NCBI GenBank assembly: GCA_020425695.1
Contig: JAGQRE010000017.1
Location: 1-42,784, forward strand
Direction of reading: 5' to 3'
DNA from: Planctomycetota bacterium
GTDB taxonomy: Bacteria > Planctomycetota > UBA8742 > UBA2392
Length of the DNA stretch: 42,784 nucleotides
The notes below the pieces were generated by a model, which worked only from the letters and a program-made list of their open reading frames with translations, made no database searches and was not told the DNA's origin. The translations under genes were made by a program, and so were the position numbers. This document shows positions 4,314-9,123 of the stretch, piece after piece (the stretch's first letter is position 1; each line of letters opens with the position of its first letter).

Positions 4314-4373
4314 TAGGCTGTAAGGTACGTCGGGCGGAAAACACGCATACCTGCCGGACAAACTGGAGAACCC

Positions 4374-5372
4374 ATGAAGATTCACGCGGGCATCATCACA
4401 GCACTTTGCCTCTTGCTGGCTGCATCGCTGCAAGCACAAAAGATCGAAGGTAAGGACGCACCCGACTTCACGATGGGCGGCACCGTCAACTGTGTAGGCG
4501 ACGTCGACAAGTCGAGCCTCATGGGTGAGGTAATCGTCATCAAGGTCTGGGGAATCACCTGAGGCCCTTGCCTGCGGCAGTTGCCGCACTTTCAGAAGAC
4601 CTTTGAAGCATACAAGGATAAAGGCGTAAGCTTCTTCGCAGTGGAAGGCGACGGGTTGACGAAGTACGAGAATCAGGCCTTTGCGGGCGAATGGGGCTAC
4701 ACCTTCCCGATCGTTACTCTGGCTGACAGCAAATTGTCAGGCTACGACATGGTCACGATGCCGATTGTGTTCGTGATCAACTCGTTCGGGCGCGTCGTGT
4801 TTCAGGGTAACGGCGACTACGAAAAGTACATCGAATCATCCCTTGAAGATCTGAAGTACCCGTACCTCGGTAAAGACGAAGTCGTCGGTGACGCCGAAAA
4901 GGCAGCCGAGGCATTCGGCAAAGGCGAGTACGCGAAGGCAAAGGAACTCGCAAATGAGCTGCTCAGTACTGAGCCGGGCGACGATGTCGCAGCCGATGCA
5001 AAGTACATCGTTGCGCGTACAGATTCGATCGCCTCGGATTGGCAGGCAAAGATCGACGCAATGAAGGGTGAACGACGCTTCGACGAAGCCACGACCTACC
5101 TTGAAAAGCTCGCGGACCACTTCAAAGGCTCGGAGATTGGCGACAAGGCCGACGAGGAATTGAAGGCCCTGAAAAAGGACAAAGATGCCAAGGCCGAGTC
5201 CAAAGCCCGCGCAAGCCTTGCCAAGACCCTGGCCGCGAACAAGAAAATGAAGACCAAAGAGGACAAACTTTCAGCGCTCTATAAGTTCTATGAGAAGAAC
5301 GAAGGAACAGCCGCTGCCGACGACGCCAAAGCCATGGCGGAGGCAATCAAGAATTCCTCGAAATACAAATAG
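4374..5372 (+). CDS. Secreted TlpA/ResA-like thioredoxin, predicted selenoprotein (Sec63, in-frame TGA)
   Basis: Periplasmic thiol-disulfide oxidoreductase. ATG 4374 follows a GGAG about 8 bases upstream. Residues 1-22 are a signal peptide (hydrophobic core, then LQAQ). Residues about 25-160 are a TlpA/AhpC-type thioredoxin domain: G-E-V-I-V-I-K-V-W-G-I-T, codon 63 TGA (4560-4562), then G-P-C (C66), with the cis-Pro loop T-M-P at P130. The family motif is W-x-x-x-C-G-P-C, so TGA replaces exactly the attacking Cys. The frame stays open for 270 more codons without a plausible start after the TGA: the first candidate, TTG 4581, lies inside the active-site helix and has no ribosome binding site. 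TGA is an ordinary stop elsewhere in the window. Residues about 165-332 are Lys/Ala-rich helices of TPR type. It ends 12 bases before the FGE-like gene, so the two are probably cotranscribed. Alternatives are a nonsense mutation or a sequencing error changing TGC/TGT to TGA. Confidence 0.8.
4560..4588 (+). promoter_or_regulatory. Predicted bacterial SECIS element (Sec-directing hairpin after in-frame TGA)
   Basis: TGA is at 4560-4562. A perfect 6-bp stem TGCGGC (4573-4578) / GCCGCA (4583-4588) closes a four-base loop AGTT. There are 16 bases between the TGA and the loop, and G is the second loop base. The published bacterial SECIS consensus asks for a loop 16-37 bases after UGA with a G in its first two positions; both conditions hold. 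SelB recognition is inferred, not shown. Confidence 0.65.
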
Positions 5373-5384
5373 CCGGAGCAGAAC

Positions 5385-6887
5385 ATGCGCTTGTTGTTGA
5401 TTGTCATTGCATGCTGCACGGCATTCTGCGTTGTCCCGGCCACAACGGCCCAGGATGCGCCGACGAAACCGGTTGTCTTCGAGACACCAGCCGGCAAGCT
5501 CACCGACCTCGGGTTGAACGCACAGGGTTACCGCGAGTTTCGGCGTGAAAAAGACAGCACGGTCATGGTGCTTGTGCCGGGCGGCTACTTCCAGAAGCGC
5601 AACTACGTCGGGAACCCCAGCATCGACGGCGGCGCTTTTCAGCTACATACGGAAGCCTTCCTAATCGACAAGTATGAGGTCACGAACTCGCAAGTTTTGA
5701 AGTACCTCAAGACACTGAGCGCGCTGAAAGTTGATGGCGACTCGGCCAAGGTAGGCGAAACGCTGCTGGCACGTAACGAAACCTGGGGGCTGAGCATCGC
5801 CGACGGCAAGGTGAAGCTCAATGACGGGCTGGCCGCCTATCCAAGCGTCGGGACAACCGGCGACTTGGCAGTGGCCTATGCCAAATGGGTCGGCGGTGAC
5901 CTGCCTTGGGGTTTTGAATGGGAGAAGGCCGCAGCGGGCCCCTCCGGGCTCACCTTCCCTTGGGGTGAAGCCGCTGTCGATAGCACCCGTGCAAACAGTT
6001 TTCTTCACGGGCCAAAACATCCGATGCCGGTAGGCAGTTTCGCCGATGGTGTTTCGCCATACGGCTGCTTTGACATGGCTGGCAACGTCTACGACCGATG
6101 CTACTGGTTTGAGACAGACAAACAGATCGACCCCAAAGCCAAACCACACATGCTGCGCGGTGGAAGCTGGGTCTCGCCCCATTGGGCAAACCTCCGTTGT
6201 GTTGACCGTTGCGCGCAGCCTATGGACGCAGCCGAAGGTTCCGTCGGCTTTCGGTGTGTAATCCGCGATCCGAAGGTACTGGCTGCCATTGGTGTGGAAA
6301 GTGATCCTGCCCTGCGCATCCACGACGACGTCCAAGCAGCCTTTGCGGAAGCATCGGCACGAAACGTACCAATCTTACTGTTCCTCGCCTTCGAGACTTG
6401 CGGGCAATGCGACCGCACCCGCGCTCAGGTCTTTACCGACCCGAAGTTCATCGAGTACGTCAACCAAAATGCTGTGTTGCTGGTCGGGCACAACCCCGGC
6501 CACGGTGTTGATGACCCTATCGAGCCAGAGGAGGGTTCATCGATACTGTATCCCGGCTGCCAGGCCGAAAACCTGCGCGAGACCTTCGACTATTTCTGCT
6601 ACACCGTGAACACTCGGGTTGTGCCGAAGCAGATCAGCGAATTCAGCATCAGCCCCGGCGAGTTTGTCCTAAACCCCCACCTTGAGTTGCAGGAACGACC
6701 AGACCAGATGGTGCTCGTCGGCGAAGCTGACTTGCCGAAAAGTGGCAACGACCCGACCGCATTCATCGACGCCCTCAAACGTGCCCAGGATGAGTTGGGC
6801 ACGGGGCAGACGCGCACGGACTTCCTGGCTGGCAAGCCGGGGCCAAAAACAAGCTGGGCCCCACCCGAAGATTCAGACGACGAATAG
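5385..6887 (+). CDS. Secreted FGE-like (SUMF1-fold) protein fused to a CGQC thioredoxin-like domain
   Basis: ATG 5385 is preceded by GGAGCAGAAC. Residues 1-23 are a signal peptide. Residues about 55-305 carry formylglycine-generating-enzyme landmarks: V-P-G-G-Y-F, F-L-I-D-K-Y-E-V-T-N, L-P-W-G-F-E-W-E-K-A, F-D-M-A-G-N-V-Y, L-R-G-G-S-W and S-V-G-F-R-C. Lined up on the final G-F-R-C, the two catalytic Cys of FGE fall on Trp residues, so sulfatase-activating chemistry is unlikely and the fold is probably a binding scaffold. Residues about 315-375 look like a thioredoxin-fold domain (P-I-L-L-F-L-A-F-E-T-C-G-Q-C, C339/C342) of the thioredoxin_7/DUF255 sort. The C-terminus is Pro/Asp-rich. It lies 12 bases after the predicted selenoprotein gene, which suggests a shared extracytoplasmic redox task. 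The substrate is unknown. Confidence 0.85.
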   Translation: MRLLLIVIACCTAFCVVPATTAQDAPTKPVVFETPAGKLTDLGLNAQGYREFRREKDSTVMVLVPGGYFQKRNYVGNPSIDGGAFQLHTEAFLIDKYEVTNSQVLKYLKTLSALKVDGDSAKVGETLLARNETWGLSIADGKVKLNDGLAAYPSVGTTGDLAVAYAKWVGGDLPWGFEWEKAAAGPSGLTFPWGEAAVDSTRANSFLHGPKHPMPVGSFADGVSPYGCFDMAGNVYDRCYWFETDKQIDPKAKPHMLRGGSWVSPHWANLRCVDRCAQPMDAAEGSVGFRCVIRDPKVLAAIGVESDPALRIHDDVQAAFAEASARNVPILLFLAFETCGQCDRTRAQVFTDPKFIEYVNQNAVLLVGHNPGHGVDDPIEPEEGSSILYPGCQAENLRETFDYFCYTVNTRVVPKQISEFSISPGEFVLNPHLELQERPDQMVLVGEADLPKSGNDPTAFIDALKRAQDELGTGQTRTDFLAGKPGPKTSWAPPEDSDDE

Positions 6888-8127: not shown

Positions 8128-9123
8128 ATGGCGCTTAAGGTGGTAGTCACCAAGACGGGGTCTACAGAGCCGATCTCCGAGCATGTTTTCGGCAAGGAGG
8201 CTCGCGCCCGCGGCATCAGTGTCGGCAGCGGTCCTGAGTGCGATATCAAGCTGGAAACCGCCGCTGAGGCCGAAGGGCGTGTCGAGCGGCAGTCGTCTGG
8301 CTACTTCTACGTCGATCTTGGCAGCAAAGAGGGCTACACCGCCGATGGTCGCAAGCAGGACCCCGGTACATCGTTTCAAGTCACGGTCGGCACCAAGATC
8401 GGGCTTCATGACTGGGTGCTTGAGTTTGCCCGTGGCGAAACGCCGAAACGTGAGCCGGTCCCGACCCAGACTGAAGCGACCATTGTTGCGGCTCCGGACG
8501 ACGTAAACGCTGCGGCCTACAAGCTGATCTCTGAAGTATCACTTCACTTCCTTGGTGAAGGACACTTTCACACGGTGGACGAAGTTGAGCGCTTTGGCGC
8601 CCTGATTCGCCTGACCCTTGAAGTCGCTATGGAGTGGATGGGGCGCTCGCTGAAGGGCCGGGACGAATTCAAAGACCAGTTCAGCGCGCCCTTAACCCAG
8701 ATTTTCGCGCGCAGTCTGAACCCGGTCAAGAAGGGTCAGGACATCACCCAGATCGCCAACTTCCTGCTGGACTGGCGCGAAGAGCGCGACCTGGACGAGA
8801 TCAAAGGCTCGCTGCAGCACGCCTTCCAGGACATGGCGAAGCACCAGATGGGGTTGCTGGCCGGCGTACAGCAGTTCGTGTCAGAGCTTCAAACCAAGTT
8901 GGACCCGGTGACAATCGAGAAAGACGCCGGTGGCGGCATTTTCGGCGGCGCCAAGAAGGCTTGGGAGCGCTACGCAGACCTCTACGGTGAGACCTTTGCC
9001 GAAAGCAGCAAACTCTTTAACGAGTTGATCTATCCAAGCATCCGGAAGGGCTATATTTTCTCGCACGAAGACATTCAAAGTGAAGATGTTCCAAGTGTGA
9101 AGAAGCCGCAGAACGGCTCATAA
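8128..9123 (+). CDS. Second T6SS FHA-like protein with a degenerate FHA domain
   Basis: This is a paralogue of the gene just upstream. The C-terminal T6SS FHA domain (residues about 130-285, with H-Q-M-G-L-L-A-G-V-Q) is well kept. The N-terminal FHA-like region (about 1-95) has lost the phosphothreonine contacts: V-G-R-S has become V-G-S-G, S-R-x-H is absent, and S-R-N-G-T has become S-K-E-G-Y. It may therefore act as a structural partner, perhaps dimerising with the intact Fha through the shared C-terminal domain (inference). ATG 8128 is preferred over GTG 8116, which adds four residues; neither has a strong ribosome binding site. tssJ follows after 22 bases. Confidence 0.85.
   Translation: MALKVVVTKTGSTEPISEHVFGKEARARGISVGSGPECDIKLETAAEAEGRVERQSSGYFYVDLGSKEGYTADGRKQDPGTSFQVTVGTKIGLHDWVLEFARGETPKREPVPTQTEATIVAAPDDVNAAAYKLISEVSLHFLGEGHFHTVDEVERFGALIRLTLEVAMEWMGRSLKGRDEFKDQFSAPLTQIFARSLNPVKKGQDITQIANFLLDWREERDLDEIKGSLQHAFQDMAKHQMGLLAGVQQFVSELQTKLDPVTIEKDAGGGIFGGAKKAWERYADLYGETFAESSKLFNELIYPSIRKGYIFSHEDIQSEDVPSVKKPQNGS

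What the first reader, a model, noticed from the sequence alone, without database searches (positions are those of the whole stretch)
4374..5372. Probable selenoprotein: a TlpA-like thioredoxin with TGA in place of the first active-site Cys
The only stop in a 333-codon frame is TGA at 4560, exactly at the catalytic Cys of W-x-x-x-C-G-P-C, giving U-G-P-C. Sequence on both sides belongs to one thioredoxin fold (cis-Pro loop at P130), no start with a ribosome binding site exists downstream, and a hairpin with a G in its loop starts 10 bases after the TGA. By established rules Sec replaces redox Cys and needs a SECIS next to the UGA. Automatic annotation would split this into a short fragment and a pseudogene or mis-started protein.
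Basis: partly seen in the sequence, partly recalled or inferred. Interest (0 to 1): 0.9.

Follow-up and report, generated by a model that had tools for sequence, protein, structure and literature searches.

The report
Selenocysteine ResA-like redox protein gene
[quoted passage not shown] the type of protein is known, but the size of this family and its heavy use of selenium look new.

Summary
The frame 4374-5372 holds one TGA (4560-4562), at the first active-site residue of a ResA/TlpA-like thioredoxin fold (WGIT-U-GPC). The same genome has tRNA-Sec (anticodon UCA) beside selA, plus selB and a selD that itself has an in-frame TGA at its usual Sec site. From genomes of the same phylum I collected 138 distinct family copies with a residue at this site: 104 have TGA exactly here, 21 have Cys, 13 have neither. 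A hairpin at 4573-4588 with G in its loop behaves as a bacterial SECIS. In 28 relatives its stem changes compensatorily. Stems in this or two neighbouring registers occur in 68 of 104 Sec copies and in none of 21 Cys or 12 Asp copies. TGA is conserved across orthologues only 68-70% identical, so a read error, pseudogene or split gene is very unlikely. The protein is probably an exported thiol-disulfide reductase with a helical, TPR-like C-terminal domain. UxxC redoxin/TlpA selenoproteins are already catalogued. Apparently new are the two-domain subfamily, its expansion, tandem Sec/Cys/no-thiol triads, and a genus-level link to a type VI secretion cluster. Nothing was shown experimentally.

The parts
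4365..4368 (+). Shine-Dalgarno-like GGAG upstream of ATG 4374
   Evidence: read
4374..5372 (+). selenoprotein gene: exported ResA/TlpA-like thioredoxin-fold protein with helical C-terminal domain, 332 residues with Sec63
4374..4439 (+). probable signal peptide (residues 1-22)
   Evidence: hydrophobic N-terminus ending ASLQAQ read directly; inference, no predictor run
4560..4562 (+). TGA codon 63 = selenocysteine (active-site nucleophile position)
4569..4571 (+). TGC codon 66, resolving Cys of U-G-P-C
4573..4588 (+). SECIS-type hairpin: stem 4573-4578/4583-4588, loop AGTT 4579-4582
4761..4763 (+). codon for cis-Pro 130
4881..5354 (+). helical TPR-like C-terminal domain, shared with the C-terminus of NCBIfam NF041382
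303..4313 (+). upstream WD40-repeat protein, same order in three congeners
5385..6887 (+). downstream FGE-sulfatase-like protein with a C-terminal Thioredoxin_7 domain (CGQC)

Best explanation
4374-5372 encodes a selenoprotein. During translation UGA 4560-4562 is decoded as Sec by SelB, tRNA-Sec(UCA) and the hairpin at 4573-4588. The product is exported and acts as a ResA/TlpA-like thiol-disulfide oxidoreductase. Sec63 makes the nucleophilic attack on a substrate disulfide (or oxidised thiol), and Cys66 resolves the mixed selenylsulfide. The C-terminal helical domain probably binds the substrate or partner. Supported by sequence comparison: recoded TGA, Sec machinery, SECIS covariation, fold family. 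Inferred: export, direction of the redox reaction, substrate, role of the C-terminal domain.
For: tRNA-Sec, 72 bits and anticodon UCA. selA next to it, over the NCBIfam cut-off although cut by the locus edge; selB over the cut-off. selD, 398 bits, with its own in-frame TGA in HGAGUGCK. Homologues: TGA at the same codon in 104 distinct copies, Cys in 21. TGA kept in three orthologues at 68-70% identity, with substitutions mostly at third codon positions on both sides of it. SECIS: covariation score 0.440 against 0.112 in shuffles and at most 0.111 when slid; 21 compensatory cells against 4.6. Hairpin register in 68/104 Sec, 0/21 Cys and 0/12 Asp-form copies. 46 of 49 genomes with Sec forms have a strong tRNA-Sec, against 86 of 150 others. 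Fold: ResA structures E 1.8e-15; with a family profile E 4e-35 to 2e-26 for the best redoxin, ResA and DsbE structures.
Against: No expression, mass-spectrometry or selenium-labelling data. Three genomes with Sec forms (G016, G080, G136) show no strong tRNA-Sec; they are MAGs of about 230-290 contigs. The hairpin of this one gene is not exceptional by folding energy alone (z -1.4); the case rests on covariation. 36 of the 104 Sec copies do not use the same hairpin registers; most have another hairpin, and seven have none by my scan.
Confidence: 0.96

Rival explanations
1. Pseudogene or assembly/read error: codon 63 is really TGC/TGT, or the gene is dead.
For: Cys is the residue found in non-Sec homologues; the assembly is a fragmented one.
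Against: The same TGA in 104 distinct copies from about 50 separately assembled genomes; purifying pattern on both sides; SECIS covariation.
Confidence: 0.01
2. TGA is a sense codon (Cys or Trp) throughout this genome.
For: SelD and several redox genes also have in-frame TGA.
Against: TGA ends 6 of 24 main window genes, among them T6SS genes that overlap the next gene; the UCA tRNA found is tRNA-Sec beside selA; in the family copies in-frame TGA is confined to the active-site codon apart from a few near the end of the gene.
Confidence: 0.01
3. Two products by termination and re-initiation: a 62-residue peptide and a 263-residue protein from TTG 4581.
For: Some termination at Sec UGA is normal, so a truncated peptide is probably made; an ORF from TTG 4581 exists.
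Against: The split cuts the thioredoxin fold at its active site; no RBS seen; TGA and the frame upstream are conserved with the SECIS.
Confidence: 0.02
4. Same selenoprotein, but mainly a peroxidase (Prx-like) rather than a disulfide reductase.
For: Pfam AhpC-TSA and, in 14 of 30 relatives, GSHPx profiles match.
Against: Named relatives and structures matched are ResA/TlpA/DsbE; the WxxxUxPC motif with a resolving Cys at +3 is that of disulfide oxidoreductases.
Confidence: 0.15

Closest known systems
ResA thiol-disulfide oxidoreductase (B. subtilis; PDB 2h1b, 1st9; NCBIfam NF002854)
   Same: Thioredoxin-like fold, W..xCxPC active site, cis-Pro; matches residues 25-148
   Different: ResA has Cys in place of Sec and no C-terminal helical domain; score 68 bits is far under the model cut-off of 170
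Catalogued UxxC 'Redoxin family protein' (PF08534) and 'Thiol-disulfide isomerase-like protein' (cd02966) selenoproteins, Table 1 of PMC13188914
   Same: Same superfamily and UxxC motif with Sec first
NCBIfam NF041054, ResA-like WAxxUGC (probably the catalogue's 'UGC-containing TlpA' entry)
   Same: ResA-like fold with Sec at the same place by its name; 18 of 30 relatives match weakly
   Different: Motif UGC instead of U-x-P-C; the window protein itself is not listed at E 0.01
NCBIfam NF041382, VPGUxxT family thioredoxin-like (seleno)protein type 1
   Same: C-terminal domain (profile 197-347) matches residues 176-322, 48.7 bits; 20 of 30 relatives match
   Different: No match in its thioredoxin half with the VPGUxxT motif; cut-off of 350 bits not reached

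Membership tests
Bacterial selenoprotein gene | In-frame UGA at a position occupied by redox Cys in homologues | tested here: met
   104 TGA and 21 Cys at the site
Bacterial selenoprotein gene | SelA, SelB, SelD and tRNA-Sec in the genome | tested here: met
[quoted passage not shown]
   Loop AGTT, G at its second position, 16 nt between UGA and loop, local hairpin -10.7 kcal/mol; covariation
Bacterial selenoprotein gene | Sec found in the protein | not testable with these tools
   needs mass spectrometry or 75Se labelling
TlpA/ResA-like thiol-disulfide oxidoreductase | Thioredoxin-like fold with C/UxPC and cis-Pro | tested here: met
TlpA/ResA-like thiol-disulfide oxidoreductase | Export or membrane anchoring | tested here: inconclusive
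   signal-like N-terminus read by eye only
ResA (NF002854) | Model cut-off of 170 bits | tested here: not met
   68 bits
NF041382 VPGUxxT type 1 | Cut-off of 350 bits and VPGUxxT motif | tested here: not met
   48.7 bits, C-terminal domain only
NF041054 WAxxUGC | UGC motif and model match | tested here: not met
   window protein not listed; motif UGPC
Catalogued UxxC Redoxin selenoprotein (PF08534) | PF08534 with UxxC | tested here: met
   42.5 bits against the 26.6 gathering score

The most novel reading that the evidence does not exclude
A two-domain selenoprotein family, ResA-like U-x-P-C domain plus helical domain, has proliferated in this phylum. Sec is the norm and Cys the exception, there are five or more Sec copies in some genomes, and in one bacterial family tandem triads pair a Sec copy with a Cys copy and a copy that has lost both redox residues. 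In one genus a copy has become part of a type VI secretion gene cluster and may serve redox folding of its exported parts.
Probability: 0.4. Interest if true: 0.65.

Novelty: new member of a known kind. Interest (0 to 1): 0.45.

Why it matters
Selenoprotein genes are often cut in two by annotation pipelines (established knowledge). Here a whole family with at least 104 Sec copies in about 50 genomes is at risk of that, and no NCBIfam model reaches its cut-off for the window protein. A family in which Sec, Cys and thiol-less copies sit side by side is a natural test of what selenium adds to an exported disulfide oxidoreductase, and of how often Sec and Cys interconvert (at least 11 label changes on the tree). 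It also adds this phylum, probably Planctomycetota, to those that use several selenoproteins; that phylum is not mentioned in the 2026 review searched here, although a few planctomycete selenoproteins were reported before (PMC4807772).

Tried and rejected
Rfam scan of the gene: no SECIS family hit; bacterial SECIS elements are too varied for Rfam models, so this says little. Genome-collection scan with the protein alone: one distant locus, not useful for alignment. Folding energy against synonymous-codon shuffles: mean z -0.95 in Sec and -0.74 in Cys copies, not discriminating, so I used pairing register and covariation instead. Pattern search for TGGGS-N7-TGA-N3-CCNTGY in the own genome: five family genes plus one chance hit on C275. 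16S rRNA to name the organism: not found in the assembly. Structure from a single sequence: thioredoxin half not modelled (pLDDT under 50), helical half fairly confident; the PDB fold search gives only weak TPR (YbgF, BamD) matches, used only as a hint. Other in-frame TGA codons in the window beside redox-like motifs were listed and none looked like a coding gene.

Full report
What is there. Frame 4374-5372 on the + strand is open for 332 codons apart from one TGA at 4560-4562. Residue 63 lies in V-W-G-I-T-U-G-P-C, followed by the cis-Pro at residue 130. Pfam Redoxin (42.5 bits) and AhpC-TSA (42.0 bits) match over residues 25-155, that is across the TGA. A GGAG stands before the ATG. The downstream start listed for the rest of the frame, TTG 4581, lies inside the hairpin.

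Is the TGA read as selenocysteine? The genome (4.14 Mb, 341 contigs, 88.7% complete) has a tRNA-Sec scored 72 bits, called tRNA-SeC with anticodon TCA by ARAGORN. Beside it is a selA stretch over the NCBIfam cut-off (284 bits, cut off by the locus edge), and on another contig selB over the cut-off. selD scores 398 bits and itself carries TGA in HGAGUGCK, the canonical Sec site of SelD. TGA is also an ordinary stop in this genome: 6 of 24 main window genes end with it.

Homologues. A search of 199 genomes of the phylum found matches in 180, and most of the listed matches contain exactly one TGA. I took these out and aligned them. Of 139 distinct copies, 104 have TGA at the aligned codon, 21 Cys, 12 Asp, 1 Ser, and 1 could not be aligned there. 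Later loci were fetched with a preference for TGA copies, so the ratio is not an unbiased census; the position of the TGA is what counts. In the three closest orthologues (68-70% identity) codon 63 is TGA, and substitutions fall mostly at third positions on both sides of it (against G004: upstream 15/14/35 at positions 1/2/3, downstream 61/49/138). That makes a read error or a decayed gene very unlikely.

Presence of the machinery. Of 49 genomes with Sec forms, 46 have a strong tRNA-Sec (at least 58 bits), against 86 of 150 others (Fisher p 5e-7; outside the window's own bacterial family 30 of 33 against 86 of 150, p 2e-4). Genomes are not independent, so the p-values are a guide only. The three exceptions are fragmented assemblies.

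SECIS. The hairpin TGCGGC-AGTT-GCCGCA (4573-4588) has its loop 16 nt after the UGA, with G in second place, and fits the published bacterial model (PMC13188914). Energy alone is not striking (z -1.4). Across 28 relatives in the same register the stem is paired in 97% of cells, with 21 compensatory cells (shuffled mean 4.6) and covariation score 0.440 (shuffled 0.112; slid registers at most 0.111). These 28 were chosen for fitting this register, which favours the percentage paired more than the covariation. Stems in this or two neighbouring registers occur in 68 of 104 Sec copies and in 0 of 21 Cys and 0 of 12 Asp copies. The loop keeps G-U-U or G-G-U while the stem sequence changes.

What protein it is. 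By sequence the nearest solved structures are B. subtilis ResA (E 1.8e-15). A family profile reaches redoxin, ResA, DsbE and TlpA structures. In 30 diverse members the invariant residues correspond to U/C63, P65, C66 and G84, with P130 nearly invariant. Residues 170-327 are modelled as helices with fair to good confidence; they match the C-terminal part of NCBIfam NF041382 (VPGUxxT type 1), 48.7 bits, and 20 of 30 members match that model. One member matches TPR models. So the family joins a ResA-like domain to a helical domain also used by another selenoprotein family. No NCBIfam model reaches its cut-off for the window protein.

Family history. On a tree of 135 copies (103 Sec, 20 Cys, 12 with no active-site Cys) the labels need at least 11 changes. 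In the window's bacterial family there are tandem triads: a Sec copy, a Cys copy and a copy with W-H-x-R-D in place of the motif. In this genome the triad is on contig C23.

Neighbourhood. In three congeners (G002, G003, G004) the order is WD40 protein, this gene, (FGE-like protein in two of them), FHA proteins, T6SS genes, at 62-95% identity for the T6SS proteins over the stretches taken. In the next genus the orthologue (45-46% identical) shows none of these neighbours in the stretch taken. The link to the type VI cluster is therefore a genus-level fact, with no evidence yet of function.

Mechanism. By analogy with ResA/TlpA (established knowledge), Sec63 would attack an extracytoplasmic disulfide and Cys66 would resolve the selenylsulfide, with re-reduction by a membrane thiol donor that I did not look for. 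Recoding and fold are supported by tool results; export, direction and substrate are inference.

Known or new. UxxC selenoproteins of the Redoxin and TlpA superfamilies are listed in the current catalogue, which credits marine metagenome and comparative genome work (PMC1088965, PMC2398784, PMC5029168), and several planctomycete selenoproteins have been reported (PMC4807772). So the kind is known. I found no description of this two-domain subfamily, its expansion, or the triads in the papers searched, but that library is incomplete and I read few papers in full. The phylum is inferred to be Planctomycetota from the very large DUF1559 (PF07596) families in several relatives together with established knowledge; it was not named by any tool.

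Noticed in passing
L051:1-3600 (own genome contig C23): Tandem triad of paralogues: one with U-G-P-C, one with C-G-P-C, one with no active-site Cys (WHIRDGT); the same arrangement recurs in several genomes of the family.
   Followed up: partly
L093 (own genome contig C58, about 8883-9071): Short frame with FIEFGSYT-U-PPC and YTREAHPDDG, resembling the deiodinase-like selenoprotein family (resemblance from memory).
   Followed up: no
L077 (own genome contig C297, 35358-35741 -): PrxQ/Bcp-like peroxiredoxin with TGA at what looks like the peroxidatic position (NTSG-U-TKEA).
   Followed up: partly
own genome contig C306:14046-14225 - (L168): Weak match to the thioredoxin half of NF041382 with one in-frame TGA: a possible VPGUxxT selenoprotein.
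   Followed up: no
window 6920-30980: Nearly complete type VI secretion cluster with FHA-type regulators, TssJKLM, TagF, ImpA, VipA/B, Hcp, TssF/G, ClpV, VgrG and a DUF2169/pentapeptide protein.
   Followed up: partly
window 5385-6887: FGE-sulfatase-like domain fused to a Thioredoxin_7 domain with CGQC, directly downstream of the selenoprotein; absent from this place in G002.
   Followed up: partly
L138 (G173 contig C11): Family relative with Cys at the usual site but an in-frame TGA elsewhere in the matched stretch; may be a different Sec position or a misalignment.
   Followed up: no
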